This document shows positions 19,341 to 34,670 of a stretch of 64,000 bases of DNA, in pieces. A model generated the notes under the pieces. The model did no database searches. It saw only the letters and a list, made by a program, of their open reading frames with translations, and was not told the DNA's origin. The stretch lies in assembly GCA_019239775.1 (NCBI GenBank), contig JAFAZN010000135.1:1-64000 (forward strand). Direction: 5' to 3'. Made by a program: the position numbers and the translations under genes. Origin of the DNA: Chloroflexota bacterium (lineage in GTDB: Bacteria > Chloroflexota > UBA6077 > CF-72). Positions within the stretch are counted from its first letter, which is position 1. The number at the start of each line of letters is the position of its first letter.

Positions 19341-19594
19341 TCATGACCTTTGAGGTTCCTCACCCCCGAGGTCCATCACCCCCGAGGTTCCTCACCTCCG
19401 AGGTTCCATCACCTCCAAGATTCCTCACTTTCTGAGGTCCACCACCCCCGAGGTTCCATCACCTTTGAGGTCCATCACGTCTGAGGTCCATCACGTCTGA
19501 GGTTCATCACCCGTGAGGTTCATTACCCACGAGGTCATCACGTCTGAGGTCCATCACCCGTGAGGTCCATCACCTCCGAGGTCCATCACCCATG
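19341..19594 (-). repeat. Tandem repeat array 1: about fifteen degenerate 15-17 bp units
   Basis: The plus strand reads as successive units of the type GAGGTCCATCACCTCC with variable last four bases (CCCC, CTCC, GTCT, CCGT). Most units are 16 bp, some 15 or 17. Read on the minus strand the core is GGTGATGGACCTC, and three units contain GGAGGTGA, an exact complement of the conserved 16S rRNA 3' tail (TCACCTCC). GAGGT and ACCTC inside such units can pair as a 5-bp hairpin. The array lies about 20 bp downstream of the FAH gene stop (minus strand) and ends 80 bp before the PEBP gene. It fills most of the 353-bp gap at 19262-19614. No open frame or CRISPR-like spacers are seen. Confidence 0.85.
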
Positions 19595-19614
19595 TAGCGC
19601 GAACCGCCGTGACC

Positions 19615-20556
19615 TCAGACGGCGCGAGCGGCGGAGAGTTGCGCGCTGGACGCAGAAGTTGGGTCGTAAGCGGCGACGGTGTTGCGCAAGACGCCGATTC
19701 TTTCGACCTCCGCCTCCATGACGTCGCCGACCTTGAGGAACTCGCGCGGCTTGCGTGCAAAACCAACGCCGCTCGGCGTACCGGTCAGGATCACGTCGCC
19801 TGGCTCGAGCCGAAGTCCCGTCGAAACCTCCTTGATGATGCGCGGAATGCGGAAGGCCATGTAGCTCGTGTTCGAATCCTGCTTGGTCGCGCCGTTCACG
19901 CGCAGGGTGATGCGCAGCGCGTGCGGATCGCCGATCTCATCGGAGGTCACGATCCATGGCCCGAGCGGGCAGTGCGAGTCGAAGTTCTTACCCTTGAACC
20001 ATTGGCCGCCGTGGCGTCGCTGGACGTCTCTGACGGAGACGTCGTTGGCGACCGTGTAGCCGAAGATGTGCTCGTAGGCACGCTCTTCCGGGATGTCGCG
20101 GCCGGCCGTGCCGATCACGATCGTTAGCTCCACTTCCCAGTCCAGCTGATCCGAGATTGGCGCGGGGTGCCAGACCGGTGCCTCGGGCCCGACGACGCAA
20201 TTCGGCTGCTTGCTGAACAGGGCGGGGAAATCTGGAATCTGCTGGGCATCGTCATTAGGCCCGCGCATGCCCTGGCCTTCGGCAAAGTGCTCGAGGTAGT
20301 TCCAGCCGACACAGAACAGATTCCTTCGGACCGTCGGGATGGGTGCAGCCAGCTTGGCGCCGTTGAGCGGCTGACCGTCGCGGGCCGCGCTCGCTTTTGA
20401 AGCAAGCTGTTGCCACAGCGGCTTACCGGCCACGAGGATGTCGAGAACCTGGTCAGGTGCGCCTGTGACGAGCTCATCGACGGGCACCAGCGTTTGATCG
20501 GGGGCGAGGATGGCCGCGCGCGGCCGCCCATCGACCAGCAGTGTGGCAAGACGCAT
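19615..20556 (-). CDS. Fumarylacetoacetate hydrolase family protein
   Basis: This 313-residue protein has the FAH C-terminal catalytic fold: N-Y-L-E-H, a metal site formed by E-V-E-L (D-W-E-V-E-L-T-I-V-I-G), the downstream Asp in A-N-D-V-S-V-R-D-V-Q, K-G-K-N-F-D-S-H-C-P-L-G-P and G-D-V-I-L-T-G-T-P-S-G-V-G. The small N-terminal domain (residues 1-75) is also typical of 2-hydroxyhepta-2,4-diene-1,7-dioate isomerase and acylpyruvase relatives. It cleaves or isomerises C-C bonds in 2-oxo acids; the substrate is unknown. Its stop codon is directly followed by array 1. The gene stands alone and divergent from the DUF1453-like gene (124-bp gap). Confidence 0.92.
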   Translation of the reverse strand: MRLATLLVDGRPRAAILAPDQTLVPVDELVTGAPDQVLDILVAGKPLWQQLASKASAARDGQPLNGAKLAAPIPTVRRNLFCVGWNYLEHFAEGQGMRGPNDDAQQIPDFPALFSKQPNCVVGPEAPVWHPAPISDQLDWEVELTIVIGTAGRDIPEERAYEHIFGYTVANDVSVRDVQRRHGGQWFKGKNFDSHCPLGPWIVTSDEIGDPHALRITLRVNGATKQDSNTSYMAFRIPRIIKEVSTGLRLEPGDVILTGTPSGVGFARKPREFLKVGDVMEAEVERIGVLRNTVAAYDPTSASSAQLSAARAV

Positions 20557-20680
20557 ACGCGTTTCATGCTAGCCGTCCACCCGTGGGTGGAGATCCCGCC
20601 GCGCGAAGATCCATCTGGCCGCCGATGTGGCAGGCAGCCTCCTGGCGGCATGCTACGTGGCGAAGGGACAACGAACTCAG

Positions 20681-21178
20681 ATGACAAACAACTTCGCGGA
20701 TAGCTTCTCGGGACCGCAGGGTCTGCTCCTTGGCGCAGCGCTCATTCTGTTCTTCATCGTCCGGCAGTTCGGCACGCGCCGCGTCTTGAATCTCTGGAAC
20801 GTGCTTCTGCCAGCTGCGCTGCTGTACTTCGGCCTGCAGGGGCTGGGTGACCTCGACTCGATTGGTTGGCTGCTGCTCGGGCTCAGCATCTCGTTGGCGA
20901 TCGCCTTCGGCGTCGCGCGCGGGCTGACCTTCCGCGTGTGGACCGACGCGAGCGGCCAGGCATTGATGCGCGGCGGCGTGCTCACGCTGGTCCTGTGGGT
21001 AGCCACGATTGGGGTCAAGGTTGGGCTCACCTTCGCGGAAATCAAGCTCGGCCTGGCCGCCGAGAGCACCTCAACGGCCGCGTCGCTGATCCCAGGCGCG
21101 GTGACCATCGGCGCTCAGCTGCTGGTCGTCTACCTGCGGGCGCAGGACGCCCGGGTTGCCAACTACCAGCTCAACTGA
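20681..21178 (+). CDS. DUF1453/CcdC-like membrane protein
   Basis: This is a 165-residue protein with about four hydrophobic helices (starting at 11, 38, 60 and 100) and a final amphipathic helix. Between helices is G-V-A-R-G-L-T-F-R-V-W-T-D-A-S-G-Q, and L-W-V-A-T-I-G-V-K-V-G-L follows. This pattern is seen in DUF1453-type proteins that accompany two-component systems in high-GC bacteria. Function is unknown. The ATG at 20681 was preferred over 20627 because the hydrophobic part starts soon after it. It is followed 97 bp later by the histidine kinase gene on the same strand, so a regulatory or sensing link is plausible. Confidence 0.65.
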   Translation: MTNNFADSFSGPQGLLLGAALILFFIVRQFGTRRVLNLWNVLLPAALLYFGLQGLGDLDSIGWLLLGLSISLAIAFGVARGLTFRVWTDASGQALMRGGVLTLVLWVATIGVKVGLTFAEIKLGLAAESTSTAASLIPGAVTIGAQLLVVYLRAQDARVANYQLN

Positions 21179-21275
21179 CAATTCTGCTTCTCTTCAGAGA
21201 AGGTTTGGCGCATCTGCGTTGGGGCGCTCGGGGCGTATAGTGCCGAGCGTCTACACCTCGCGAGGTAAGACCAGC

Positions 21276-22442
21276 ATGAGTCCGCTGCGCATGGTCGAAA
21301 ATCTTCGGGCTCCAGGATCCGCACGGATCACTGGATCCCAGTGGCGCGGTCTGGCGGGCCTGGGCATCGTGCTGGTGGCGATCGCGCAATCAGCGGTCAA
21401 CGTCCAGGACCCGACTCGGTTGGAGATTGTGATCGGGCTCACGCTGATCATGACCGCGGGTTGGATCCTCCAGCTGGGACCGTGGAAGGTTGTCGGCGTT
21501 TGGATGCTTGGCAGCGCCGCTTGCGCGTTGATGCTGGTGATGCCTGGCAGCGGCGCGGTCATTGGCCTCATCGGGGCGCTGGTGACTGCTGGCTTGCGGC
21601 TGCCCGCTGGCACAGGTGCCCTGGCGGCAGGCATTCTCGGACCACTGTTTGTCATGATCGACCTCTGGCAAACCCGCGCGGCGCCCAATCCCGTGGCGAC
21701 CGCGCTAAGCGCGACCGGACTCGCCTTCGCGTACGTAGCAGCCATCTCGGTGCGACGTATCCGCGAGGAGCGTGAGCGTGCCGAGGCACTGCTGGAGGAG
21801 CTGCAGCGCACCCGCGCAGCCGAGATCGAGCGCGCCGCATTGACGGAGCGCACGCGCATTGCGCGGGAGATCCACGACGTGCTGGCACACACGCTCTCGT
21901 CCCTGGCGGTACAGCTCGAAGGGACGCGGATGCTCGTCGAGCAGCGGCCAGGCGACCCGGCAGCGGTGGCCGCTGTAGAACGTGCGCACCGACTCGCCAG
22001 CGAAGGTCTGGCCGAGGCGCGGCGGGCGATTGGCGCGCTGCGCGGCGACAACCTGCCCGGTCCTGAGGGCTTGCAGAAGCTCGTTCAAGAATTTAGCGAG
22101 GCAACCAGCACCCCAAGCCAGTTCGAGGTTTCGGGCGAACCGATAGCGCTGGGTGCCGAAGCGCAGCTGGCGCTGTATCGCACCGCGCAAGAGGCGCTGA
22201 CCAATGTACGCAAGCATGCACAGGCCGCAAGCGCTGTTGAGGTGAGGCTGCGTTACGCAGACGATGGTGCCGAGCTGCTGGTCGTCGATGCTGCACCTCC
22301 AGGACGATCGACGAATGGCTCCACCAAAGGCGGTTACGGTCTGGTGGGCATGCGCGAGCGCGCGGAGCTGGTTGGCGGCACGCTCGAAGCCGGCCCGCTT
22401 CCAACCGGTTTTCGGGTCAGGTTGTGGCTGCCGCGCGGCTGA
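21276..22442 (+). CDS. NarL-type sensor histidine kinase (HisKA_3)
   Basis: This is a 388-residue protein. Residues 20-160 hold about five to six membrane helices with almost no extracytoplasmic loops, so it senses within the membrane or through a partner. A short coiled coil (R-I-R-E-E-R-E-R-A-E-A-L-L-E-E-L) leads to the dimerisation domain. The phospho-acceptor is the His in R-E-I-H-D-V-L-A-H-T-L, near residue 200. The N-box E-A-L-T-N-V-R-K-H-A is intact. The usual D-N-G of the ATPase lid appears as V-V-D-A-A-P, while G-G-Y-G-L-V-G-M-R-E-R is present. The ATG at 21276 is chosen because earlier frame residues are not hydrophobic. It pairs with the response regulator at 22572. Confidence 0.92.
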   Translation: MSPLRMVENLRAPGSARITGSQWRGLAGLGIVLVAIAQSAVNVQDPTRLEIVIGLTLIMTAGWILQLGPWKVVGVWMLGSAACALMLVMPGSGAVIGLIGALVTAGLRLPAGTGALAAGILGPLFVMIDLWQTRAAPNPVATALSATGLAFAYVAAISVRRIREERERAEALLEELQRTRAAEIERAALTERTRIAREIHDVLAHTLSSLAVQLEGTRMLVEQRPGDPAAVAAVERAHRLASEGLAEARRAIGALRGDNLPGPEGLQKLVQEFSEATSTPSQFEVSGEPIALGAEAQLALYRTAQEALTNVRKHAQAASAVEVRLRYADDGAELLVVDAAPPGRSTNGSTKGGYGLVGMRERAELVGGTLEAGPLPTGFRVRLWLPRG

Positions 22443-22449
22443 TGCGCGA

Positions 22450-22503
22450 CGTGACGCTTTTTGTGACATTGCCGCCGTCACATACGGCCTTTGGCGTGAC
22501 GCT
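22450..22503. promoter_or_regulatory. Repeat-rich candidate operator between kinase and regulator genes
   Basis: The 129-bp gap between the kinase and regulator genes contains a direct repeat of CGTGACGCT (22450-22458 and 22495-22503). Between the copies is an inverted repeat TGTGAC (22462-22467) / GTCACA (22477-22482). Several GTGAC half-sites in 54 bp look like binding sites for a dimeric regulator, possibly the response regulator itself. No footprint-type consensus is known to me for it. Confidence 0.35.
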
Positions 22504-22571
22504 CCACCCCACATACTGGAGGGCGGCGGGAGGGGGGCGGCGGTGTTCGGGCGCGGGCGGCGGAGGATGCC

Positions 22572-23261
22572 ATGGCCATTGACGGCGCCGACACCAGGAG
22601 TGTGCGGGTGTTGGTGGCTGATGACCAGACCGTCGTACGCGAAGGGCTGGTGATGCTGCTCGGACTCTCGCCCGGGATCGAGGTCGTTGGCGCAGCTGCC
22701 GACGGGGAGGAAGCCGTCCAGCTCGCGCAGCGACACACGCCCGACGTTGTGCTGATGGACTTGCGCATGCCGCGCACCGACGGCGTGGCCGCGACACGTC
22801 GGATTCTGGAGATATTGCCGAACGCACGCGTGATCGTGCTCACCACCTATGCCGACGACGAATCGGTGTTCGCCGCGCTGGAAGCCGGCGCGCGCGGCTA
22901 CTTGACCAAGGACGCGACCGCGTCTGAGATCCAGCGCGCCATCCGCACCGTGCACGCCGGCGAGGCTTTGCTGGATCCGTCGGTGCAGCGGCGACTGATC
23001 GAGCGTGCGTTGAGCGCGACGTCGGCGCCGGAGACCGCTGCGCCAGCGCTCGCCGCGTACCCTGATGGGCTCACCCAGCGCGAAGCAGAAGTGCTGCGCG
23101 AGATCGCTGCCGGCCGCAGTAATCGCGAGATCGCCGAGCGGCTCGTGATCAGCGAAGCCACCGTCAAGACGCATGTCAACAACATTTTTTCGAAGGCCAA
23201 TCTGCGCGATCGCGCACAGGCGGTCGTCTATGCGCTTCACCACGGACTGGCTCAGTCCTGA
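22572..23261 (+). CDS. LuxR/NarL-type response regulator
   Basis: This is a 229-residue protein. The receiver domain (residues 11-130) has the acidic pair D-D near residue 18, the phospho-acceptor Asp 63 in L-M-D-L-R-M-P, T-T-Y and the conserved Lys in Y-L-T-K-D-A. A 25-residue Ala/Pro linker leads to the GerE helix-turn-helix (about 167-225, L-T-Q-R-E-A-E-V-L and S-N-R-E-I-A-E-R-L-V-I-S-E-A-T-V-K-T-H). It should bind DNA when phosphorylated by the kinase encoded just upstream. The start is the ATG at 22572. The nitroreductase gene starts 3 bp after its stop and is probably in the same operon. Confidence 0.95.
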   Translation: MAIDGADTRSVRVLVADDQTVVREGLVMLLGLSPGIEVVGAAADGEEAVQLAQRHTPDVVLMDLRMPRTDGVAATRRILEILPNARVIVLTTYADDESVFAALEAGARGYLTKDATASEIQRAIRTVHAGEALLDPSVQRRLIERALSATSAPETAAPALAAYPDGLTQREAEVLREIAAGRSNREIAERLVISEATVKTHVNNIFSKANLRDRAQAVVYALHHGLAQS

Positions 23262-23264
23262 TTG

Positions 23265-23861
23265 ATGGACTTTCAGACAGTCGTTCGCAAGCGTCGAATG
23301 CTGCGCAGCTTCGAGCCGCGACCGCTTGCGCCCGAGATGGTGGAACGCATCCTGGCGAATGCGCAGCGCGCTCCATCGGCTGGGTTCAGTCAGGGCTGGG
23401 CCTTCTTGGTTTTGGAAGGCGACACGGAGACACGGCGTTACTGGGATGCTGTCGGGCCTGCAGATGCCGATGCGTTTCGATGGCAGGACCTCTACAAGGC
23501 GCCCCTACTGATCGTTTGCCTTTCGCACAAGGCCGCGTACCTGGACCGCTATGCCGAAACCGATAAAGGCTGGACGGACCGGTCCGAGGCGCACTGGCCG
23601 GCGCCCTACTGGGATATCGATACGGGGATGGCCGCGATGCTCATGCTGCTGACCGCGGTGGACCTGGGCCTCGGAGCGCTCTTTTTCGGCATCCCGGTGG
23701 GCAAAATCGCCGCGTTCCGCACCGCCTTCGGCGTGCCCGAAGCGTACTCGCCCATCGGGACCGTCGCGATCGGCTATCCAAAACCGCACGACCCACCGTC
23801 GCCGTCGCTGAAACGCGGCCACCGCCCACCAGCCGAAGTCATCCACCGCGGCCGCTGGTAG
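23265..23861 (+). CDS. Nitroreductase family protein
   Basis: This is a 198-residue FMN-dependent oxidoreductase. It shows the phosphate-binding R-K-R-R-M-x-R-S-F at the N-terminus, Q-R-A-P-S-A-G-F-S-Q-G-W-A-F-L-V in strand 2, M-A-A-M-L-M-L-L-T-A-V-D-L-G-L-G-A-L and the C-terminal I-G-Y-P. Members reduce nitro or quinone compounds with NAD(P)H or act in cofactor metabolism; the substrate is not evident. It follows the response-regulator stop by 3 bp (an adjacent TTG at 23262 is an alternative start). The second half of its downstream gap is array 2. Confidence 0.9.
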   Translation: MDFQTVVRKRRMLRSFEPRPLAPEMVERILANAQRAPSAGFSQGWAFLVLEGDTETRRYWDAVGPADADAFRWQDLYKAPLLIVCLSHKAAYLDRYAETDKGWTDRSEAHWPAPYWDIDTGMAAMLMLLTAVDLGLGALFFGIPVGKIAAFRTAFGVPEAYSPIGTVAIGYPKPHDPPSPSLKRGHRPPAEVIHRGRW

Positions 23862-23877
23862 GGGCCCCGCCGCACGC

Positions 23878-24074
23878 CACGGAGGTGAATGTCTCTCACG
23901 GAGGTGAATGTCCCACGGACGTCAGGCACCCGCAGAGGTGATGTGCTCGCGCAGGTGGAAGTCCCACGGAGGTGAATGTCTCTCACGGAGGTGAATGTCC
24001 CACGGACGTGGTGCCACCTACGGAGTGAATGTCCCACACGGAGGTGGAAGTCCCTTCCGGAGGTAGTTGAGCCC
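23878..24074 (+). repeat. Tandem repeat array 2: about eleven degenerate 15-20 bp units
   Basis: Units read CACGGAGGTGAATGTC with 2-4 variable bases after it. Variants include CGCAGAGGTGATGTG and ACGGAGTGAATGTC. GGAGGTGA, the complement of the 16S rRNA 3' end, occurs in four units. A 45-bp block starting at 23878 is repeated exactly 87 bp downstream, showing a higher-order duplication. The array begins 17 bp after the nitroreductase stop, in the same orientation, and ends 105 bp before ftsK. It fills most of the 318-bp gap 23862-24179. An opposite-strand open frame across it is a by-product of the repeat. Confidence 0.85.
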
Positions 24075-24179: not shown

Positions 24180-26315
24180 GTGCCGCTGGCAACCACTCGT
24201 CGACGGCCTGGTCGTCCGATCCCTCGGCCGCGCCGCACCTCGCGCTCCTCGCGCGATTCGACGAGCGCGCTGGAGCGCATCGGCGAGTTCTTGGACCGCT
24301 GGGCGCCGCCAGGCGGTTGGCTGCTGGCAGCCTTGATACTGCTCACGCTCTCGACGGCAGCGGGCGTGATCTTCCCGCTGAGCCCGGCCGGCATCGCGCT
24401 GCAAATCAGTGTGGGCAGCCTCGGCGCACCACTGGTGCCGGCATGGTCCGCCTGGCTGACGTGGCTGCTGGCGCGGCACCAGCGCCCAACGGTCCTGCGG
24501 GTCCTCAGCCTGCTGATCCTGTCGGCCACCTGGCTCCTTGCGCTGGCACTGCGCGAGCCCCAGGCCGGTGGACTGCTCGGCGATCAACTCCTGGCGTGGC
24601 TCTATGCGGGCTTTGGGCATGCCGCGGGCCTGGCCTTGGTGTCGGTCGCCTCGGCCGCTTCGGTGGTCTACCTGGTCGGCCTCGACCGAATCCTTACCGC
24701 ACTTGGTTACGCATGGCGATTCGCTCAGACAGCATGGGGTGCCCGTCCAAGTGCATTGCGCGCCGCCGTGGTGCGCGTCCCGCGCGTTCGGCATGGCACG
24801 CTGACAGCTCCTGAGGAGATCGAGCCAGTCATCCTCGGACCCTCGTCACCCTCCGTTGAGCCGTCACGCGCCAGAAATGCAGAGCCGCCCAGCGGTGAGG
24901 CGCAGCGCCGGCCGCGTCATGTCGAAACCCCCGAGCACGGCGGCACTGCCTGGCGGCGGCCCGATCCCGGTATTCTCGGCCGCGCAACTGACGGGGGCTC
25001 CTTCTCTCCGGCAGAGCTCAAGGCCCGGGCGCGCATCATCGAAGAAACCCTCGAGTCGTTCAACATCCAGGCGCGTGTTGTGGAGGTCCAGCAAGGCCCC
25101 GCCATCACCCAGTTCGGCGTCGACCCTGCGCCAGGTGTGGCGGTGAACCGCATCGTGCAGCGGCAGAACGACCTTGCGCTGCGGCTCGGTGCGCCAACTC
25201 TGCGCGTGCTGGCACCCGTGCCCGGTCGACCCATGGTCGGCATCGAGGTGCCCAATACATCGGTTGCGACGGTGAAGCTTGGCGACCTGATCGCTTCGTC
25301 CCAATTCACGCGTGCGCGGCTGCCGATCGGCGTCGGTATGGACGTTGCGGGCAAGCCGGTGGTGGCCGATCTCACGCGGATGCCGCACCTGCTTGTCGCA
25401 GGCGCCACAGGGTCAGGCAAAAGCGTGTGCATCAACAGTCTGATCACCTCGCTGCTCGTCACGCGCACGCCGGACGAAGTCCAGTTCGTGATGATCGATC
25501 CAAAGCAGGTCGAGTTGAGCCAGTACCGCGGCTTGCCACATTTGCGGCTGCCCGTAGTCACCGACATGGAAAAAGTGGTGGCGGCGCTGCGCTGGACAGT
25601 CCTCGAAATGGAACGCCGTTACGGCCTGTTCGCAGATGTCGGGGCGCGCAACATCCACGCCTTCAACGAGCGCTTTCCGGACGAGCGGCTGGTCTATCTC
25701 GTGCTGGTCATCGACGAGCTCGCGGACATGATGATGACGGCCGCCGAGGACGTGGAGCGGCTGATCTGTCGACTGGCGCAGCTTGGCCGGGCGGCCGGCG
25801 TGCACCTCGTGGTCGCCACGCAGCGGCCGAGTGTGGACGTGCTGACGGGGTTGATCAAGGCGAACCTGCCGACGCGGATCGCCTTCGCCGTTTCCTCCCA
25901 GATCGACTCGCGCGTGATCCTCGACCGAACGGGGGCCGAGCGGCTGCTCGGCCGCGGCGACGCGTTGTACCAGGCGGGCGATGAGATGAACCCGCGTCGC
26001 GTGCAGGGCGCCCTGGTGTCCGATGACGAGATCGAAGCGGTCTGCGCGTGGTGGCGCGACCAGGGCGAGGCGCAGCACACCGCCGACGACGAGGCCGAGC
26101 TCGAAAAGCTGGCGCGGCAGGAGGATCCCGAGGAGCGGCTGCTGGCCCAGGCGCGCGAGATCCTGCTGTCGCACGAGGGGGAGATCACCCCCGGGTACCT
26201 GGCGCGCAAGCTGAAGATTGGCATCCAGAAGGCCAATCGCATTCACCAGACGCTAGTCGCCGACGAGGCCGCGGCCTACCTCGTCGCCGACGACACGGCA
26301 GGTTCACGCGACTAA
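24180..26315 (+). CDS. ftsK: FtsK/SpoIIIE-family DNA translocase
   Basis: This is a 711-residue protein. Residues 40-180 contain four membrane helices, shorter than the E. coli protein but normal for many Gram-positive-type FtsK/SpoIIIE. A linker of about 90 residues leads to the alpha domain (A-R-I-I-E-E-T-L-E-S-F-N). The beta motor follows, with Walker A G-A-T-G-S-G-K-S near residue 408 and Walker B V-L-V-I-D-E-L-A-D near 507. The Q-R-P-S-V-D and N-L-P-T-R-I-A-F motifs are intact. The last 60 residues are the gamma winged-helix that reads KOPS-like sites (P-G-Y-L-A-R-K-L-K-I-G). It moves DNA at the division septum. The start is GTG 24180. It overlaps the convergent PAS gene by 4 bp. Confidence 0.96.
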   Translation: MPLATTRRRPGRPIPRPRRTSRSSRDSTSALERIGEFLDRWAPPGGWLLAALILLTLSTAAGVIFPLSPAGIALQISVGSLGAPLVPAWSAWLTWLLARHQRPTVLRVLSLLILSATWLLALALREPQAGGLLGDQLLAWLYAGFGHAAGLALVSVASAASVVYLVGLDRILTALGYAWRFAQTAWGARPSALRAAVVRVPRVRHGTLTAPEEIEPVILGPSSPSVEPSRARNAEPPSGEAQRRPRHVETPEHGGTAWRRPDPGILGRATDGGSFSPAELKARARIIEETLESFNIQARVVEVQQGPAITQFGVDPAPGVAVNRIVQRQNDLALRLGAPTLRVLAPVPGRPMVGIEVPNTSVATVKLGDLIASSQFTRARLPIGVGMDVAGKPVVADLTRMPHLLVAGATGSGKSVCINSLITSLLVTRTPDEVQFVMIDPKQVELSQYRGLPHLRLPVVTDMEKVVAALRWTVLEMERRYGLFADVGARNIHAFNERFPDERLVYLVLVIDELADMMMTAAEDVERLICRLAQLGRAAGVHLVVATQRPSVDVLTGLIKANLPTRIAFAVSSQIDSRVILDRTGAERLLGRGDALYQAGDEMNPRRVQGALVSDDEIEAVCAWWRDQGEAQHTADDEAELEKLARQEDPEERLLAQAREILLSHEGEITPGYLARKLKIGIQKANRIHQTLVADEAAAYLVADDTAGSRD

Positions 26316-27637: not shown

Positions 27638-29281
27638 TTAGCCAGGAGGTGCGAGCTCGGGGAGTGTGATGCTGCCTGGTCGCCGCCGCGAGTTGGCGAC
27701 GAGCGCACGCCAGGCAGCGGCAAGCGCAAGCAGGCCAAGCGGCAAGGCGGCAGCAGCGGAGGGCGAGCTTGGCGCGCCCAGTGAGCCGCTCACGGGCGGT
27801 GGCATGCCGGCGGCCGCGGGCGGCGGCGCCGGCCCGCCGCGTTGGTCGGTGTCATGGGTGGGCGCACCCAGTTCGAAAGCTGGCGTCGGCGGCGCAAACA
27901 TCACCTGGGTGGCGCGCGGTATGACAGCGGTCACCATGGGCCGGATGGGCGCGGCCGTAGTTTCGAACTGAACCTCCCGCTCCAGAAGGGACCGGTCCGC
28001 ACCGTGCGCGGCAGCGGGCGCCGGCGCGATGGGCGTCCACGCCGCAGGGTCTCTTGCGGCACTCGGCTGAAGCGTTCCGGCGGTTGCACTCACCGTTCGG
28101 GCCCGTGCACTCACCACGGCGGGCGTCCGCAGGCTGCTGTCTCGCTGTGCGGTGAGCGGCACAACTGGTTCATCGCGAGGTGCCATGCGCGCGGGCGCGC
28201 TAGCACGGGACGCCTGGAGAGCCGCGTCTGCTTCGCTCGCGGGAGCGTGCGTCATGGCGAGTGGCGCCGCAGGTGCAGCCACCTCCCTTCCGCTTACGGC
28301 CGGCGAGGCTGGCAGCGATGGCGCCGTTGCCGTTGGTGCCGAAGGCGCGGCGGGCGGCAGAACCTGCTGGACGACGGGTCCGACGGCGCCCGGGTCAGCC
28401 GGCGGCGGCGTGGCCTGGTCCACGACAGGCGCAACCACCTGGTCGGTCGTGGCGGCAACCGTCGCGACAACCTCGTGGGTGACAGGTGCCACCGAGTCAG
28501 TCGTCGCGTCCACAGTCGCCACAAGGTCATCGGTCACCGGCGCCACCAACTGGTCGGTCGTGGCCGCAACCGTTGCGACAACGTCGTGGGTGACGGGCGT
28601 CTCAACCGACTGTGCGGTTTCAGCTACTGGCTCCACGACCTGTTGCACCACGGCGGATTCAGGTTTCGCGACGGACTCCGCCGTGGAGCTCACTGGTTTG
28701 GCCGCGTTCTGTACGAGGTCGGTAGCCGTGCGTGCTTCGGGCTGCGCAACCGCGGTGACGGCCTTCGCAGCGGACTGCACCACGCTACTGGCGGGCTTCT
28801 CCACGGATTGCGCCGCATTGGCAACCGGCTTCACAACGGTCTGTGCCGCAGTTTCAACTGGCTTTGTCGCCGCTGGCACGGCAGGACTCACGGGCTGCGC
28901 CGCAGTTTCATCGGGCTTTGTCGCCGCTGGCACGGCAGGACTCACAGGCTGCACGGCTGGCTGAACGGCATCGCTCACAGGCTTGACCGCCGGTGGTGCA
29001 GCACTGCTCACAGCCTTGACGGCCGGCTGGACGGCGCTGCTCATAGGCTGAACGGCCAGCTGGACGGCGCTGCTCATAGGCTGAACGGCCGGCTGGACGG
29101 CGCTGCTCACAGGCTGAACGACCGCGCCCGTGCTCTTGGGGACCGTCTGCGTCACCGGTGCGACGCCACCCGGCAGTGGTCCGGCCGCCTGCACGTCAGC
29201 CACGCTGACGCCAAGCCACAGCCCAGCGGCCGCCAGGCCGATGGACACACCGAACAGCCCGCCGTAGTTGGGCAGTCGCAT
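27638..29281 (-). CDS. Secreted low-complexity repeat protein with C-terminal membrane anchor
   Basis: This 547-residue protein has a signal-like N-terminus (LFGVSIGLAAAGLWLGVSV, cut near V-Q-A-A). Residues 50-180 are built of Val/Ala/Pro/Ser repeats such as P-V-S-S-A-V-Q-P-A-V-Q, with 11- and 18-residue periods. Residues 200-300 carry a different repeat (V-V-A-T-V-A-A-T-T-D-Q-L-V-A-P-V). A Pro/Ala-rich disordered region precedes a C-terminal hydrophobic helix (AAAALPLGLLALAAAWRALV), then R-R-R and a short tail. It looks like a cell-surface stalk or fibre with a stop-transfer anchor. The ATG at 29281 with GGAG 10 nt upstream is preferred over a TTG at 29305. No homologous function is recognised. 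Confidence 0.7.
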   Translation of the reverse strand: MRLPNYGGLFGVSIGLAAAGLWLGVSVADVQAAGPLPGGVAPVTQTVPKSTGAVVQPVSSAVQPAVQPMSSAVQLAVQPMSSAVQPAVKAVSSAAPPAVKPVSDAVQPAVQPVSPAVPAATKPDETAAQPVSPAVPAATKPVETAAQTVVKPVANAAQSVEKPASSVVQSAAKAVTAVAQPEARTATDLVQNAAKPVSSTAESVAKPESAVVQQVVEPVAETAQSVETPVTHDVVATVAATTDQLVAPVTDDLVATVDATTDSVAPVTHEVVATVAATTDQVVAPVVDQATPPPADPGAVGPVVQQVLPPAAPSAPTATAPSLPASPAVSGREVAAPAAPLAMTHAPASEADAALQASRASAPARMAPRDEPVVPLTAQRDSSLRTPAVVSARARTVSATAGTLQPSAARDPAAWTPIAPAPAAAHGADRSLLEREVQFETTAAPIRPMVTAVIPRATQVMFAPPTPAFELGAPTHDTDQRGGPAPPPAAAGMPPPVSGSLGAPSSPSAAAALPLGLLALAAAWRALVANSRRRPGSITLPELAPPG

Positions 29282-29447: not shown

Positions 29448-30368
29448 ATGCTGTTCGGCCAGGTTCAGGCATTCATCGAGGTGGCGCGCACCGGCAATGT
29501 CAGCCGGGCTGCCGAAGCGCTGTACGTCACCCAACCCGCGTTGACCGCGCGCATTCAAGCGCTCGAAAAAGAGCTGGGGGAAGCCCTGTTCGTGCGTACC
29601 GGCCGCGGTGTGCGGCTGACCGATGCCGGGCGTGTATTCATGCCGTGCGCCGAGCGCGCCATTCAGGCGATGGAGGACGGTCGTCAGGCGCTCTCCGACC
29701 TTCGCTCAGCCAGCGCTGGTCGGCTGGCGCTGGGTGCGGCGCCCGCCGTCAGTACGTACGTCTTGCCGCCCGTGCTCAAGCGCTTTGCCAATCTGCATCC
29801 GCGCGTGGATGTGGCGGTGCGCACGGGCCACTCAGAAGAGATCCTGGCGATGGTGCTGAACGACGACGTCCAGGTCGGTCTGGTGCGCACGCTGCGCCAC
29901 CCCGACATCGACGCCATCCCGCTGTACGAAGACGAGCTGGTGCTGGTCTGCAATACGCAGCATCGCTTCGCGCGGCGGGGCACCGTCGAGCTGGCTGAAG
30001 TTGGCCGCGAGCGCCTCGTCATGTTCGACCGAACTTCCAGCTACTTTGAGCTGACGCAGTCGCTGTTCTTGCGCGGAGGTGTTGTCGCGCACACTGTGAT
30101 GGAGCTCGACAACATCGAAGCGGCCAAAAAGATGGTCGAAGAGGGGCTCGGCGTGGCGTTGCTGCCGCGGGTATCGGTCGCCCGCGAGGTCGGTGCGGGG
30201 CAGCTCTCCGAAATCGAGGTCGTCGATGCGCCGCCTGTTCGGCGCGGCGTGGAAGCCATCCGCCGCAAGGACGCCGGCTCCCCTGGAGGTGTGGTGCACG
30301 CGTTCCTGCAAGAGCTCGAAGCCACCCTGCGGTTGCGCGAACGCCGCTCCGTTCAACTCGTGGTGTGA
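29448..30368 (+). CDS. LysR-family transcriptional regulator
   Basis: This is a 306-residue protein. The N-terminal winged helix covers residues 1-60 (F-I-E-V-A-R-T-G-N-V-S-R-A-A-E-A-L-Y and T-Q-P-A-L-T-A-R-I-Q-A-L-E-K-E-L-G). A linker helix and the LysR substrate-binding domain follow (about 90-295, G-R-L-A-L-G-A-A-P-A-V-S, V-R-T-G-H-S-E-E-I). The ATG at 29448 is selected because of a ribosome-binding site CCGGAG and because it places the wing at the usual distance. It faces the secreted repeat-protein gene, which may be its target; this is inferred from position only. Array 3 follows about 60 bp after its stop. Confidence 0.94.
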   Translation: MLFGQVQAFIEVARTGNVSRAAEALYVTQPALTARIQALEKELGEALFVRTGRGVRLTDAGRVFMPCAERAIQAMEDGRQALSDLRSASAGRLALGAAPAVSTYVLPPVLKRFANLHPRVDVAVRTGHSEEILAMVLNDDVQVGLVRTLRHPDIDAIPLYEDELVLVCNTQHRFARRGTVELAEVGRERLVMFDRTSSYFELTQSLFLRGGVVAHTVMELDNIEAAKKMVEEGLGVALLPRVSVAREVGAGQLSEIEVVDAPPVRRGVEAIRRKDAGSPGGVVHAFLQELEATLRLRERRSVQLVV

Positions 30369-30428
30369 GCGCACGGCCTCAGCGTGCCTCGTAACGCGCG
30401 CGTACACGGTCCGTTGCACGTCGCCTTC

Positions 30429-30540
30429 TGGAGCTCACCCACCTGGAGGGTCAAACCACCCGGAGGGTCCACCCCAGGAGTCAACCCTCCGGAGGTCAAC
30501 AACCCGGAGGGATCAATCACCCGCAGGGTTCGGTTCCAAC
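30429..30540 (+). repeat. Tandem repeat array 3: about seven degenerate 13-17 bp units
   Basis: Units read CCGGAGGGTCAACCAC with variants GGAGCTCACC, GGAGGTCAACAAC and GGAGGGATCAATCAC. The shared part is CGGAGG plus TCA. It begins 60 bp downstream of the LysR stop in the same orientation, in the 223-bp gap between the convergent LysR and clpS genes. It is shorter and more decayed than arrays 1, 2 and 4, but its unit length and GGAGG core tie it to them. Confidence 0.7.
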
Positions 30541-30591
30541 GGTTTGAGCCCCGGGAGCCTGCGCGGCGCGGCTCAGCACGTAAGCGAGCGA

Positions 30592-30897
30592 CTATGCCTT
30601 CTCAATCGTGGCCGTCAGGCCGAAGGATTCGAGCCGCTCGCGGTACAGCTCCGCGAGCTCCAGTGGACAGGTGGTGACCACCGCCTTGCCGTGGTTGTGC
30701 GCCTCGAACATGATCTGCGTCGCGCGCCGCGGGCCTATGTTGGGTACCGACTTCATCAGGCAGCGCACCACGTAGACCATGTCATTGTGGTCGTCGTTGT
30801 GCAGAATGACCGACCACGGCCGCAACAGACCCTCTTTGCGTTCCTCGCGCGGCGGAGTCTCGATATCCGGCCGCGTCGGCACTTCCGTCGGGCTCAT
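30592..30897 (-). CDS. clpS: ATP-dependent Clp protease adaptor ClpS
   Basis: This 101-residue protein has the ClpS core W-S-V-I-L-H-N-D-D-H-N-D-M-V-Y-V-V, which carries the N-degron pocket (N-D-D and the Met on helix 1), followed by A-H-N-H-G-K-A-V-V and the C-terminal L-x-S-F-G-L-T-A-T-I-E. It delivers proteins with N-terminal Leu/Phe/Tyr/Trp to ClpA/ClpC. It lies directly downstream of an aldehyde dehydrogenase gene: the ATG overlaps the dehydrogenase TGA as ATGA (30894-30897). No clp ATPase gene is in the window. Confidence 0.95.
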   Translation of the reverse strand: MSPTEVPTRPDIETPPREERKEGLLRPWSVILHNDDHNDMVYVVRCLMKSVPNIGPRRATQIMFEAHNHGKAVVTTCPLELAELYRERLESFGLTATIEKA

Positions 30898-32447
30898 CCG
30901 ACCTCGAATCGAACCCCCTGCGCGAGCGGCAGGCCCGAGCCGTAGTTGACCGTGCACGTCTGCCGCCGCATGTAGGCCTTCCAGGCATCGGAGCCAGCCT
31001 GGCGACCGCCGCCGGTGGCTTTCTCCCCGCCAAAGGCACCGCCAATTTCCGCTCCCGAGGTGCCCACGTTGACGTTGGCAATGCCGCAATCGGAGCCGCG
31101 GGCGGATAACCACTCCGAAGCAGCGCGCAAGTCACGCGTGAACAAGCTGCTCGAAAGTCCCTGCGGTACCGCGTTGTTCAGCTCGACGGCCTCGTCCAGC
31201 GAGGCGACCTCGAACGCATGGAGGATCGGCGCGAAGATCTCTTCGGCACAGACGGGCATACTCGCGTGTGATCGCACAATCGTCGGCTCGACGAAGTAGC
31301 CACCCGGTTGCAAGTCAAGAACGCGGCCGCCGTAGAGCACGTTGCCGCCCTGTCGGCGGATCTCGTCCATGCCGTCGCGGAAGCCGTCCACGGCGCGGGC
31401 TGAGATCAGCGGCCCCATGAGCGTGCGTCCGTCCAGTGGATCGCCGATGCTCACGCTGCCGTACGCGTGCACCAGACGATCGACGAAAGTCGGCGCAATG
31501 CCGCGCTGCAAGATGAGGCGGCGCGTGCTCGTGCACCGCTGCCCGGCCGTGCCAACCGCGCCAAAGACCACCGCGCGTAGCGCCAGGTCCAGGTCAGCAT
31601 CGTCGAGCACGATGACAGCGTTGTTGCCGCCCAACTCCAGGATGGCTCGGCCGGTCCGTTTGCCGACCACTTCGGCAACGCGCTGTCCCATTCGACACGA
31701 GCCCGTGGCCTGGATCAACGGAATGCGCGGATCATTGATGAGCGCTTCACCGGTGGTCGCGCCGGGTCCGACGACCAGGCTGAAAATGCCCTCGGCCTCC
31801 GTCCCGTTGGTCACCTGCTGAAACACCCGCTGCGCCGCAATCGAGATCAACGGCGTGAGCTCGGATGGCTTCCAGAGGATGCTGTCGCCGCAGGTAAGGG
31901 CAATCGCCCAGCCCCAGCCGGGTACCGCGACAGGAAAGTTGAAGGCGGAGATGATGCCGACCACGCCGAGTGGGTGCCACTGCTCGAAGAGCCGATGCTC
32001 CGCTCGCTCGGAGTGCATCTCGCGGCCGTAGAGCTGCCGCGAGAGTCCAACGGCGAAGTCACAAACGTCGATAACTTCCTGGACCTCGCCGCGGGCTTCG
32101 CTCAGGATCTTGCCGTTTTCCAGCGAGATCAGCCGCGCCAGGTCCTCTTTGCGCTCGCGGAACAGGTTGCCGAGCTGGCGCACGATTTCGCCACGTCGCG
32201 GCGCGGGCACCGTGCGCCACCTCACGAAGGCCTCTCGCGCAGCTTCAACCGCGCGGTCATAGTCAGCCTGGTTCGGCGTCTGCACGCATGCGAGCAGCTG
32301 GCCCGTGGTCGGGTCGAACGTTTCCAGGATCTCGCCATGGCCTTCTTCGAACGCGCCAGCGTACGCGACGCCGCTCACGCTGCCGCCCACTTCGATCCCA
32401 AGCGTGGAAAGGATGTCGGCGCGGCGCTGCGTTTCGACGGCCACCAT
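30894..32447 (-). CDS. ALDH7-type aldehyde dehydrogenase (aminoadipate-semialdehyde / P6C dehydrogenase-like)
   Basis: This is a 517-residue NAD-dependent dehydrogenase. Visible motifs are the S-A-F-N-F-P-V-A-V-P-G-W-G-W-A segment and T-G-S-C-R-M-G-Q-R-V-A. The catalytic Glu is in L-E-L-G-G-N-N-A-V-I-V, and the catalytic Cys is in T-A-G-Q-R-C-T-S-T-R-R. The G-G-N-N-A and G-Q-R-C-T signatures separate ALDH7 from other ALDH families and point to lysine catabolism (delta1-piperideine-6-carboxylate/alpha-aminoadipic semialdehyde) or a similar semialdehyde. The ATG at 32447 is preferred to longer frames that run antisense to aroD. It is coupled to clpS by ATGA and is divergent from aroD with a 41-bp gap. 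Confidence 0.93.
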   Translation of the reverse strand: MVAVETQRRADILSTLGIEVGGSVSGVAYAGAFEEGHGEILETFDPTTGQLLACVQTPNQADYDRAVEAAREAFVRWRTVPAPRRGEIVRQLGNLFRERKEDLARLISLENGKILSEARGEVQEVIDVCDFAVGLSRQLYGREMHSERAEHRLFEQWHPLGVVGIISAFNFPVAVPGWGWAIALTCGDSILWKPSELTPLISIAAQRVFQQVTNGTEAEGIFSLVVGPGATTGEALINDPRIPLIQATGSCRMGQRVAEVVGKRTGRAILELGGNNAVIVLDDADLDLALRAVVFGAVGTAGQRCTSTRRLILQRGIAPTFVDRLVHAYGSVSIGDPLDGRTLMGPLISARAVDGFRDGMDEIRRQGGNVLYGGRVLDLQPGGYFVEPTIVRSHASMPVCAEEIFAPILHAFEVASLDEAVELNNAVPQGLSSSLFTRDLRAASEWLSARGSDCGIANVNVGTSGAEIGGAFGGEKATGGGRQAGSDAWKAYMRRQTCTVNYGSGLPLAQGVRFEVG

Positions 32448-32488
32448 GGCAGTTTTGTCCAGCCGGGTAATGCTACTGTTTGGCCGCG

Positions 32489-33514
32489 ATGCGCAAGCGA
32501 ATGCTGGCAGTCGCTTTCGGTCCGCCGACGATGGCCGCGGCACACGCTGGGTTGGCTCGGATTCGCGACGTGGCCGATTGCGTCGAGTTGCGCCTGGACC
32601 TGTTTGAGAAGCCATTCGACCTTGACGCGCTCCTCCGTGAACGCGGGACGCTACAGGTCGTGGCGACCTTGCGTTCGCGCTCCGAAGGCGGACGCAGTCC
32701 ACTGCACAGTGATGACCGCCTGAGGATCCTGCTGCGCGCAGCCGAACTCGGCGTTGACTACGTGGACGTGGAATGGGATGCCGTCACGCCCGAAGCGCTA
32801 GCAGCCCTGCGCAGCGCTGGCGCCCAGGTGATTATTTCGCGCCACGACTTCAATCTGATGCCGCCCGGCTTGGCCGATGAATGGTGGCCGCAACTGGCGG
32901 AGCTCGGCGCTGATGTCGTCAAAGTTGTTGGCACCGCCCTGAATGCGCGCGATTGCCTGCCCGTCCTGCGTGCGCTGCAGCAGGCGTCCCGCCCAACGAT
33001 CGCTATGGCCATGGGCGAACCGGGCGTTTGTACCCGCGTGCTCGCGCTTCGTTCGGACCAGTGCCTTCTCACGTATGCCGCCCTTGAGGACGGGACGGGC
33101 ACCGCACAAGGTCAGATCAGCATCCGGGACATGCGCGAGGTGTACGGTGCGCAGCGCATCGGCTCGAACACGCGCGTGTACGGTCTGCTTGGTCCACATC
33201 TCGAACGCGACCGCCTGCGCGAATACAACGCTTGGTTCGCTTCCGACAGCGTCGACGCGGTTGCGGTGCCCGTGATTGCTTCGAGCGACGCGGCCGCTCT
33301 CGTCAGCGGCTTTCGTGCGTTGCCGGTGAGCGGTTGGCATGTGCATGGCTCGGAGCTGCAGCACGACCTCGTGCGCGCACTCGACGACCTTGGGCCCGTC
33401 GCGCGGCGTCAGGGCAAAGCCAACGCCATTGTGCGCAGCGCGGATGGCGCGCTGGTTGGGCACTGGGTCGAATCGCCGCGCGAGCAGTACGAGCTCTGGT
33501 GCGCGGAGCGCTAA
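32489..33514 (+). CDS. aroD: Type I 3-dehydroquinate dehydratase with degenerate shikimate-dehydrogenase-like tail
   Basis: This is a 341-residue protein. Residues 1-225 are a class I dehydroquinase: V-E-L-R-L-D-L-F, the catalytic His 119 in I-I-S-R-H-D-F, and Lys 145 in D-V-V-K-V-V-G-T-A that forms the Schiff base. Residues 230-341 resemble only the substrate-binding half of shikimate dehydrogenase (V-Y-G-L-L-G-P, then A-R-R-Q-G-K-A-N-A-I-V-R-S-A-D-G). The catalytic Lys segment T-I-P-H-K is H-G-S-E-L-Q, the N-T-D motif is missing, and there is no NADP domain. So it is a truncated form of the fused AroD-AroE layout of plants and some bacteria. It is expected to perform the dehydratase step only. 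The stop overlaps the next, convergent gene. Confidence 0.85.
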   Translation: MRKRMLAVAFGPPTMAAAHAGLARIRDVADCVELRLDLFEKPFDLDALLRERGTLQVVATLRSRSEGGRSPLHSDDRLRILLRAAELGVDYVDVEWDAVTPEALAALRSAGAQVIISRHDFNLMPPGLADEWWPQLAELGADVVKVVGTALNARDCLPVLRALQQASRPTIAMAMGEPGVCTRVLALRSDQCLLTYAALEDGTGTAQGQISIRDMREVYGAQRIGSNTRVYGLLGPHLERDRLREYNAWFASDSVDAVAVPVIASSDAAALVSGFRALPVSGWHVHGSELQHDLVRALDDLGPVARRQGKANAIVRSADGALVGHWVESPREQYELWCAER

Positions 33515-33807
33515 CTGCTTTCTTTTCTTTTTCGGCCCTTCTGCAGGATCCCGCCGACGGCGCCAATCGACAGGATGCTGCCCGCGCTGCCGATGCACAG
33601 GATGCTGCCAGCACTCCCGATGCTCAAAATGCTGCCGTTGGAGCCAATGCTCAGGATGCTGCCCGAGCTACCAATGCTCGCGATGCAGGCGAAGCTGAAC
33701 AGGCTCAGCGCGCTCAGCGCACTGAAGTAGCTGTTCCAGCTGGCGATGCTTCTGCGTTCAGAGTCGACCGGCAAGCGGGCCAGGGGTCCGCGGCGCGCGT
33801 TCGCCAT
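33511..33807 (-). CDS. Small protein with tandem IGSxGSILS nonapeptide repeats
   Basis: This 98-residue protein has an N-terminal basic segment, then S-A-L-S-A-L-S-L-F-S. Five 9-residue repeats follow, of the form I-G-S-x-G-S-I-L-S (x = S, N, A, A, then a decayed A-V-G-G-I-L), and a basic tail K-G-R-K-R-K. The regular alternation of small (G/S) and Ile/Leu positions suggests a beta-solenoid or glycine-zipper-like membrane element. I recall similar unnamed small proteins in high-GC Gram-positives and Chloroflexota but no assigned function. Its stop overlaps the aroD stop by 4 bp, and its start is 26 bp from the divergent YbaK gene. Confidence 0.6.
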   Translation of the reverse strand: MANARRGPLARLPVDSERRSIASWNSYFSALSALSLFSFACIASIGSSGSILSIGSNGSILSIGSAGSILCIGSAGSILSIGAVGGILQKGRKRKESS

Positions 33808-33833
33808 AACACCTCAAAGTTACACTGGCGCGG

Positions 33834-34325
33834 GTGAGCCTCGATATTGACTCGCGTGTCCAGACCCAGCTCGATAGCCTCGGCCTGGCGTACGAGCTGT
33901 TCCCGTGCGACCCTGCCTTGGCCGATACCGCGAACTTCTGCGCCGCCTTTGGCTTCAAGCCCGAAGATTCCGCCAACACGATCCTGGTCATTGGTAAGTC
34001 CGATCCGCCCGTCTATGCCGCCTGCGTGGTGCTGGCGACCTCGCGGCTCGACGTCAATAAGGCAGTTCGCCAGCGCCTGGGCACGCGCAAAGCCTCATTT
34101 GCGCCTGCTGAGGACACGCGCGCAATTACCGGCATGGAAATCGGCGGAGTTACCGTTTTCGGTCTCCCGCCGGGTCTGCCGATCTGGGTTGACGCGCGCG
34201 TGATGGCTCGCGAGCGCGTGGTGCTGGGCGGCGGGAGTAGATCCTTCAAGGTGATCGCCGCGCCAGAGATCCTGCTGCGCCTGCCGCACGCCGAAGTCGT
34301 CGACGATCTGGCGCTTTCATCCTGA
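33834..34325 (+). CDS. YbaK/EbsC (prolyl-tRNA editing-like) protein
   Basis: This 163-residue protein has the YbaK fold pattern: F-C-A-A-F-G-F-K-P-E-D-S-A-N-T-I-L-V, Y-A-A-C-V-V-L-A, D-V-N-K-A-V-R-Q-R-L-G, I-T-G-M-E-I-G-G-V-T-V-F-G-L-P. The catalytic Lys of Cys-tRNAPro deacylases would be near D-V-N-K, consistent with editing of mischarged tRNA. A related C-terminal V-x-G-G-G-S-R-S-F-K is present. The start GTG 33834 is used. It is divergent from the nonapeptide-repeat gene. The downstream region is array 4. Confidence 0.9.
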   Translation: MSLDIDSRVQTQLDSLGLAYELFPCDPALADTANFCAAFGFKPEDSANTILVIGKSDPPVYAACVVLATSRLDVNKAVRQRLGTRKASFAPAEDTRAITGMEIGGVTVFGLPPGLPIWVDARVMARERVVLGGGSRSFKVIAAPEILLRLPHAEVVDDLALSS

Positions 34326-34348
34326 GCGCACCTTTTGGTCGAAAGAAG

Positions 34349-34670
34349 ACGGAGTGATGTTCCCCTCAACGAGTGATGTTCCCCTCAACGAGTGATGTTC
34401 TCCTCACGGAGTGATGTTCTCCTCAACGGGTGATGTTCTCCTCAGGGAGTGATGTTCTCCTCAGGGAGTGATGTTCTCCTCACGGAGTGATGTTTCCCTC
34501 ACGGAGTGATGTACCCCTCACGGAGTGATGTTCTCCTGGCGGAGTGGTGTTTCCCTCACGGAGTGATGTGCTCCTGGCGGAGTGATGTTCTCCTCAACGA
34601 GTGATGTTCTCCTCAACGAGTGATGTTCCCCTCACGGAGTGATGTTCTCCTCACGGAGTGAATTTCACTT
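34349..34670 (+). repeat. Tandem repeat array 4: seventeen 17-20 bp units
   Basis: The dominant unit is ACGGAGTGATGTTCTCCTC (19 bp) with small changes (ACGAGTGATG, AGGGAGTGATG, TTCCCCTC). Within a unit GGAG can pair with CTCC, and across units CTCC-TCAC-GGAG can pair. It starts 24 bp after the YbaK stop in the same orientation and ends with a decayed unit, then 140 bp of unassigned sequence before the convergent zinc-ribbon gene. It is the best-preserved of the four arrays and occupies most of the 486-bp gap 34326-34811. No frame through it looks like a protein. Confidence 0.9.

What the first reader, a model, noticed from the sequence alone, without database searches (positions are those of the whole stretch)
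19341..34670. Family of four intergenic tandem-repeat arrays with a 16S-complementary core
Four gaps (19341-19594, 23878-24074, 30429-30540, 34349-34670) contain 7 to 17 tandem 13-20 bp units. The units differ between arrays but share a GGAG(G)T-G-A-T-G like core. When each array is read in the orientation of its preceding gene, the core resembles an extended Shine-Dalgarno sequence. GGAGGTGA is the exact complement of the conserved 16S rRNA 3' tail. Each array begins 17-60 bp after a stop codon (FAH gene, nitroreductase, LysR, YbaK), always in that gene's orientation. Units also hold short GGAG/CTCC pairings. Non-identical but related arrays at four places in 15 kb imply a mobile or frequently regenerated element, or selected 3'-end RNA function such as ribosome or anti-SD binding, mRNA stabilisation or termination. 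I know of no described class that fits.
Basis: partly seen in the sequence, partly recalled or inferred. Interest (0 to 1): 0.82.

Follow-up and report, generated by a model that had tools for sequence, protein, structure and literature searches.

The report
Genome-wide lineage-specific bacterial minisatellite family
The four repeat arrays are part of one DNA family found at roughly 320 gaps between genes in this uncultured bacterium and absent from its relatives, so this looks like a bacterial genome heavily colonised by satellite DNA rather than an RNA device that binds ribosomes.

Summary
The four arrays are real, at the stated coordinates. They belong to a genome-wide family of imperfect 15-19 bp tandem units (main consensus CCCACGGAGTGATGTCTCC). 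Sampling 1.3 Mb of the same 7.2 Mb assembly suggests about 44 array-bearing gaps per Mb, roughly 320 in the genome, and about 6% of intergenic DNA. The family is lineage-specific: GGAGTGATG-N7-13-GGAGTGATG occurs 80 times here, never in two same-genus genomes, and 3 apparently unrelated times in 399 other genomes of the phylum. Relatives keep the gene order at all four loci without the array.

Only co-directional gaps can test orientation: 14 arrays are sense, 9 antisense (p=0.52). Most units read GGAGTGA, not the anti-SD complement GGAGGTGA (277 against 32). Folding and covariation tests find no RNA structure.

Arrays favour convergent gaps and the stop-codon side of co-directional gaps, in either orientation. 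A fixed 73-bp string of diverged units recurs 28 times, so multi-unit pieces were copied between loci. No inverted-repeat ends, target duplications or Y1 transposase were found.

Best reading: dispersed satellite DNA, spread by copying and slippage, kept where harmless. How it spreads, and why the unit core is conserved, remain unknown.

The parts
19347..19592 (-). Array 1: about 15 units of 16 bp (minus strand ACCTCGGAGGTGATGG type), between the PEBP-family gene and the FAA-hydrolase gene, both on the minus strand
   Evidence: TRF; sequence; few close relatives in the genome; same-genus G001 keeps both genes with a 228-bp gap in which no such array is seen
23878..24064 (+). Array 2: about 10 units of 17 bp (CACGGAGGTGAATGTCC type, main family), between nitroreductase and FtsK/SpoIIIE genes
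   Evidence: TRF; G001 has a 47-bp alignment gap here against 299 bp in the window, and G002 also lacks the array
30433..30538 (+). Array 3: about 6 units of 15-17 bp (ACCCGGAGGGTCAACC type), convergent gap between LysR and ClpS genes
   Evidence: TRF; few close relatives in the genome; gap 236 bp here, 25 bp in G001, about 0 in G002
34349..34661 (+). Array 4: 16.5 units of 19 bp (CACGGAGTGATGTTCTCCT, main family), convergent gap between the YbaK-like editing-domain gene and an unassigned ORF
   Evidence: TRF; as a query it finds 58 matches in the own genome; gap 508 bp here against 22 bp in G001
19615..20556 (-). Fumarylacetoacetate hydrolase-family gene preceding array 1
   Evidence: Pfam PF01557, E 3.7e-74
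18770..19261 (-). Phosphatidylethanolamine-binding-protein family gene following array 1
   Evidence: Pfam PF01161, E 9e-39
23265..23861 (+). Nitroreductase-family gene preceding array 2
   Evidence: Pfam PF00881, E 5.4e-24
24180..26315 (+). FtsK/SpoIIIE-family gene following array 2
   Evidence: Pfam PF01580, E 1e-62; 79-80% identical orthologues in G001 and G002
29448..30368 (+). LysR-family regulator gene preceding array 3
   Evidence: Pfam PF03466 and PF00126
30592..30897 (-). ClpS-family gene convergent to array 3
   Evidence: Pfam PF02617, E 1.5e-18
33834..34325 (+). YbaK-like aminoacyl-tRNA editing-domain gene preceding array 4
   Evidence: Pfam PF04073, E 2.8e-21

Best explanation
A lineage-specific, dispersed bacterial minisatellite (satellite DNA) family. 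An ancestral array of diverged roughly 17-bp units, including a fixed 73-bp string of variant units, was copied to hundreds of intergenic sites. Each copy then drifted and was remodelled locally by slippage or unequal recombination (multi-unit duplications), which gives arrays with different periods and consensus units. Copies survive mainly in convergent gaps and just downstream of stop codons because insertion upstream of genes is harmful. Shown: dispersal, lineage specificity, absence at orthologous gaps, shared multi-unit block, local multi-unit duplication, placement bias, lack of orientation bias, conserved unit core. Inferred: that spread is copy-type recombination or repair (templated insertion, gene conversion) or mobilisation in trans, and that retention is largely neutral.
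For: Family size: 58 matches with one array as query; 75 motif arrays in a 1.305-Mb sample; 23 array-bearing gaps in an unselected 520-kb subsample, about 320 for 7.2 Mb, 6.3% of intergenic bases. Lineage specificity: 12-mer 173 copies here, 0-4 in 28 other genomes of the class; paired pattern 80 against 3 apparently unrelated matches in 399 phylum genomes. Empty orthologous gaps. Common origin: 73-bp string of distinct variant units, 28 copies here and 0 in 60 relatives. Local remodelling: 50-181 bp duplications at 98-100% identity within arrays; units more alike within than between arrays, 0.71 against 0.63. Placement: convergent gaps 24/190, co-directional 29/771, divergent 9/181 (convergent vs co-directional p=2e-5, vs divergent p=0.01); nearer the upstream stop in 22 of 29 co-directional gaps, p=0.008.
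Against: The unit core ACGGAGTG varies half as much as the rest of the unit within arrays (6.7% against 13.4%, lower in 37 of 46 arrays, p=4e-5), which neutral satellite drift alone does not predict and which hints at a bound protein or at a core required by the copying process. No copying enzyme was identified. Arrays 1 and 3 are only loosely related to the main family. Empty sites come from relatives too diverged (79-80% FtsK identity) to show insertion junctions.
Confidence: 0.62

Rival explanations
1. Arrays of binding sites for a lineage-specific DNA-binding protein (nucleoid or topology protein, or transcription regulator); the core ACGGAGTG is the site and the linkers drift.
For: Core positions are twofold less variable within arrays and arrays have a single unit orientation throughout; lack of bias relative to genes fits a DNA rather than RNA role.
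Against: Spacing between cores varies from 15 to 19 bp and is often irregular; arrays are missing in same-genus species, so the partner would have to be new as well; arrays are scarce where regulators usually act, in divergent gaps.
Confidence: 0.18
2. A non-autonomous mobile element (MITE-like, as BrickBuilt) carrying a minisatellite and mobilised by a transposase, reverse transcriptase or rolling-circle enzyme in trans.
For: Lineage-specific intergenic insertions; a conserved 73-bp block in 28 arrays; BrickBuilt is a precedent (PMC4596501).
Against: No inverted or direct repeats in array flanks beyond shuffled pairings; apart from array units and the block, no common words were found in the flanks, and the window flanks recur only weakly (array 4 right flank); the block lies inside arrays, not at their ends; no Y1 transposase in the assembly. 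Other transposases and reverse transcriptases were not searched.
Confidence: 0.13
3. One reading: sense-strand 3' repeats that bind ribosomes or the anti-SD, stabilise mRNA or terminate transcription.
For: Arrays sit soon after stop codons; predicted pairing of array 24-mers with a canonical anti-SD averages -8.9 kcal/mol against -6.0 for regions upstream of genes and -5.3 for random 24-mers.
Against: No orientation bias (14 sense, 9 antisense); the consensus pairs only -9.8 kcal/mol against -22.4 for the true complement; no stable or covarying structure; no Rfam match.
Confidence: 0.05
4. Assembly or binning artefact of a metagenome-assembled genome.
For: 507 contigs, contamination 5.09%; 19 of 75 motif arrays lie at the edge of a fetched stretch, many of these at contig ends.
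Against: All four window arrays lie inside one 64-kb stretch, and gene order at each array is shared with same-genus G001; units within arrays differ from each other, which is unlike a collapsed or chimeric assembly. Exact copy numbers may still be wrong.
Confidence: 0.02

Closest known systems
Dispersed non-coding prokaryotic satellite families (Subirana and Messeguer 2019, PMC6749651; e.g. Chloroflexus aurantiacus Fam_1_14_23, Leptospira interrogans families)
   Same: Tandem repeats with a related unit scattered through one species' genome, mostly species-specific, attributed by those authors to transposition.
   Different: The largest bacterial family they list has 23 members (a heptamer-derived family); here about 320 array-bearing gaps are estimated, units are 15-19 bp, highly imperfect, with a conserved core and a shared multi-unit block. 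With an approximate re-implementation of their criteria this genome has about 19 satellites/Mb in the unselected sample, against 14.4/Mb for C. aurantiacus and 12.8-23.0/Mb for Burkholderia mallei and pseudomallei chromosomes in their table.
BrickBuilt minisatellite MITE of Porphyromonas gingivalis (PMC4596501)
   Same: Imperfect 23-nt tandem units, intergenic, species-restricted, variable copy number, conserved and non-conserved positions within the unit.
   Different: BrickBuilt has 19 copies with leader and tail segments and small terminal inverted repeats; none of those terminal features was found here, and copy number is more than ten times higher.
STRR (short tandemly repeated repetitive) sequences of heterocystous cyanobacteria
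   Same: Tandem intergenic repeats in many places of a genome (own knowledge; STRR mentioned in PMC2670836).
   Different: STRR units are heptanucleotides (own knowledge); units here are 15-19 bp.
REP/BIME palindromes with RAYT transposases (PMC3733652)
   Same: Preference for convergent and unidirectional gaps, high copy number, patchy lineage distribution.
   Different: No GTAG/CGTC-tagged palindromic unit and no Y1 transposase gene in the assembly.
MIRU elements of mycobacteria
   Same: Oriented tandem intergenic repeats containing start/stop-like TGATG (own knowledge).
   Different: MIRU units are several times longer (own knowledge); periods here include many values not divisible by three and orientation is unbiased.

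Membership tests
Dispersed prokaryotic satellite family (PMC6749651) | Tandem repeats with at least four repeats of the same decamer in 800 nt and mostly constant period | tested here: met
   Arrays 1, 2 and 4 of the window pass an approximate re-implementation (array 3 does not); 19.2/Mb in the unselected sample
Dispersed prokaryotic satellite family (PMC6749651) | Related units at many non-coding places in one genome, usually species-specific | tested here: met
BrickBuilt-type MITE minisatellite | Terminal inverted repeats at element ends | tested here: not met
   Flank-to-flank inverted matches equal shuffled pairings, mean 6.3 against 6.4
BrickBuilt-type MITE minisatellite | Conserved leader and tail at the two ends | tested here: not met
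   A conserved block exists in 28 copies but lies inside arrays; no common terminal words found
REP/RAYT system | Palindromic unit with GTAG or CGTC tag | tested here: not met
   Unit consensus has at most a 3-4 bp palindrome; 5-bp stems are mostly fewer than in shuffles
REP/RAYT system | Y1 (RAYT) transposase gene in the genome | tested here: not met
   PF01797 gives 0 hits in the own assembly (91% complete), 1 each in G001 and G003
STRR | Heptanucleotide unit | tested here: not met
   Periods 15-19 dominate
Anti-SD (16S 3' tail) complement | Core GGAGGTGA exactly complementary to the 16S tail | tested here: not met
   277 GGAGTGA against 32 GGAGGTGA in motif arrays; own 16S not in the assembly
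Sense-oriented 3' RNA element | Orientation bias relative to the upstream gene | tested here: not met
   14 sense, 9 antisense in co-directional gaps, p=0.52 by gap
CsrA-binding RNA (GGA in hairpin loop) | Conserved hairpin presenting GGA | tested here: not met
   CsrA gene is present, but no structural conservation or stability and no orientation bias
Protein-binding site array | A protein that binds the unit specifically | not testable with these tools
   Core conservation only

The most novel reading that the evidence does not exclude
A new kind of bacterial mobile satellite: a transposon-end-free minisatellite copied as multi-unit segments into hundreds of gene ends within one lineage by a dedicated but unidentified copying activity that recognises the conserved ACGGAGTG core.
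Probability: 0.2. Interest if true: 0.8.

Novelty: new variant of a known kind. Interest (0 to 1): 0.52.

Why it matters
Satellite DNA that spreads through a whole genome is treated as a eukaryotic feature; the published prokaryote survey found dispersed non-coding families rare and small (at most 23 members in bacteria, PMC6749651). This genome appears to hold an order of magnitude more, absent from same-genus species, with orthologous empty sites and a traceable shared block. That makes the question of how bacterial satellite DNA spreads and what limits it testable in one clade.

Tried and rejected
RNA hairpin or GGA-loop (CsrA-like) units: unit palindromes not better than shuffles, array folding z near 0 and no convincing covariation, 5-bp stems mostly fewer than in shuffles; the block has only a -3.5 kcal/mol consensus fold. 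Anti-SD complement: minority form. Known RNA families: none. Phage or plasmid origin: no plasmid match; two pattern scans of viral contigs empty, a third gave only simple 8-bp repeats and a coding repeat. RAYT mobilisation: no Y1 transposase. MITE ends and target duplications: none. Coding potential: periods are mostly not multiples of three, and no motif array fell mainly in a called gene. Naming the host by homology in the GTDB contigs did not succeed (best hit 60% identity, mixed phyla). Gene calls are from a simple codon-usage caller written here, not Prodigal; gap classes inherit its errors.
Full report
OBSERVATION. The four arrays exist at the stated places: array 1 at 19347-19592 (minus-strand unit ACCTCGGAGGTGATGG), array 2 at 23878-24064 (CACGGAGGTGAATGTCC), array 3 at 30433-30538 (ACCCGGAGGGTCAACC) and array 4 at 34349-34661 (CACGGAGTGATGTTCTCCT). 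Each starts about 17-60 bp after a stop codon. No Rfam family or tRNA is in the window.

GENOME-WIDE FAMILY. The window lies in a 7.2-Mb assembly of 507 contigs, 91% complete. Array 4 used as a query finds 58 matches there. I fetched 1.305 Mb of that assembly, called genes with a codon-usage script and ran TRF and a motif matrix. Most intergenic arrays share one unit, consensus CCCACGGAGTGATGTCTCC, period 15-19 bp, with a single unit orientation inside an array. In 520 kb chosen without regard to hits, 23 gaps carry arrays, 44 per Mb, which extrapolates to about 320 gaps; arrays make up 6.3% of the intergenic bases of that subsample.

LINEAGE SPECIFICITY. CACGGAGTGATG occurs 173 times here (reversed control 0) and 0-4 times in each of 28 other genomes of the class, including 0 and 3 in two same-genus genomes. 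The pattern GGAGTGATG-N7-13-GGAGTGATG occurs 80 times here and 3 times in 399 other genomes of the phylum, with different spacer sequence. Viral contigs and plasmids gave nothing related.

EMPTY SITES. Same-genus genomes keep the gene pairs but not the arrays. Alignment gaps: array 2, 299 bp here against 47 bp in G001; array 3, 236 bp against 25 bp in G001 and about 0 in G002; array 4, 508 bp against 22 bp in G001. For array 1 the G001 gap is 228 bp against 404 bp and holds a different dispersed palindrome. The arrays are therefore gains of this lineage (or losses in both relatives, which is less simple).

ORIGIN BY COPYING. Seventeen places in the sample carry a conserved, non-identical 73-bp string (GTTCCTTACGGACGTGATTCCTCACGCAGTAACGGTCCnGACCAAGGTGGAATCCTnTCCGGGGTGAAGTCCC, mean column identity 84%) that reads as four different diverged units in fixed order inside arrays. 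A model of it finds 28 copies in the whole assembly and none in 60 relatives. A fixed order of four different variants cannot easily arise independently, so multi-unit pieces were copied between loci. Within arrays, 50-181 bp stretches are duplicated at 98-100% identity, and units are more alike within than between arrays (0.71 against 0.63), which fits continuing local slippage or unequal recombination.

PLACEMENT. Arrays occupy 24 of 190 convergent gaps, 29 of 771 co-directional gaps and 9 of 181 divergent gaps (convergent vs co-directional p=2e-5, vs divergent p=0.01). Among gaps with at least 40 bp outside any array the same ordering holds (22/84, 27/331, 9/145). In co-directional gaps arrays lie nearer the upstream stop in 22 of 29 (p=0.008). 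Orientation is not biased: 14 sense, 9 antisense, p=0.52 counted by gap. This is what avoidance of the region upstream of genes would give.

NO RNA STRUCTURE. Unit hairpins are no better than shuffled units, array folding averages z of +0.26 (sense) and -0.21 (antisense), pair positions show no consistent compensatory change, short inverted repeats of 3-4 bp are enriched (they are the motif itself) while 5-bp stems are mostly fewer than in shuffles, and the block has a consensus energy of only -3.47 kcal/mol with no covariation support. CsrA is encoded, but nothing ties it to the arrays. The consensus pairs with a canonical anti-SD at -9.8 kcal/mol against -22.4 for the true complement. Array 24-mers are still somewhat better than random 24-mers (-8.9 against -5.3), as any GGAG-bearing sequence would be. 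The anti-SD used is the canonical one because the assembly has no 16S gene.

CORE CONSERVATION. Aligning each array to its own consensus, positions ACGGAGTG differ at 6.7% against 13.4% elsewhere, lower in 37 of 46 arrays (p=4e-5). This is the one sign of constraint. It could mean a bound protein, a core needed by the copying process, or unequal age of positions, and it remains unexplained.

MECHANISM. I tested for mobile-element hallmarks: no inverted or direct flank repeats beyond shuffled pairs, no common leader or tail at array ends, no Y1 transposase in the assembly. Copying by recombination or repair, or mobilisation by an unidentified enzyme, both remain open; I rank the former first only because no terminal signals were found.

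COMPARISON. The nearest described kind is the dispersed non-coding satellite family of prokaryotes (PMC6749651: rare; largest bacterial family 23 members, in Chloroflexus aurantiacus) and the BrickBuilt minisatellite element (PMC4596501: 19 copies, leader, tail and inverted-repeat ends). This family meets the satellite definition and fails the BrickBuilt, REP/RAYT and STRR features tested. The host's phylum is not named by the tools; the size range of its 400 sampled members (0.9 to 13.7 Mb, with complete genomes near 1.5 Mb) suggests Chloroflexota, which is an inference only.

LIMITS. The genome is a fragmented metagenome assembly, so copy numbers per array may be off. The loads of relatives rest on 163 kb (2 small intergenic arrays) plus whole-genome motif searches, which would miss arrays of unrelated units. 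The genome-wide total is an extrapolation. The gene caller is simple. Several tests were chosen after seeing the data, so p-values near 0.01 should be read as descriptive.

Noticed in passing
L033 17458-17588, L053 227-367, L060 100-237, L107 6340-6477; G001 L222 near 1596-1647 and 4022-4073: A second dispersed intergenic repeat, a long REP-like palindrome (AAGTTCGGCCGAC...GTCGGCCGAACTT), 10 exact 13-mer matches in 1.3 Mb here, 12 in 94 kb of same-genus G001, 0 in 72 kb of G002. In G001 it sits in the gap that holds array 1 here.
   Followed up: partly
window 34661-34811: The non-array right flank of array 4 has a 71%-identical 113-bp match in L088 3713-3822 and short matches elsewhere, so it may contain a further low-copy intergenic repeat.
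   Followed up: partly
L053 5115-5221 and 5302-5400; L068 6307-6405; L077 10362-10438; L090 2253-2444: Intergenic tandem arrays with units unrelated to the main motif (e.g. AATCCTGGACCTCTCTA, GCGCCTTGGTGCCTCT), so the genome is rich in minisatellites of more than one origin.
   Followed up: no
L274 153-338 and L275 1489-1550: A subfamily with period about 31 (GAACCCTCCGTGAGGTTCAACCCTCCGGGAGAT), two alternating half-units, related to array 3.
   Followed up: no
window 28435-29124 and 33571-33696: In-frame tandem repeats (periods 54, 33 and 27, multiples of three) that look coding, unlike the intergenic arrays.
   Followed up: no
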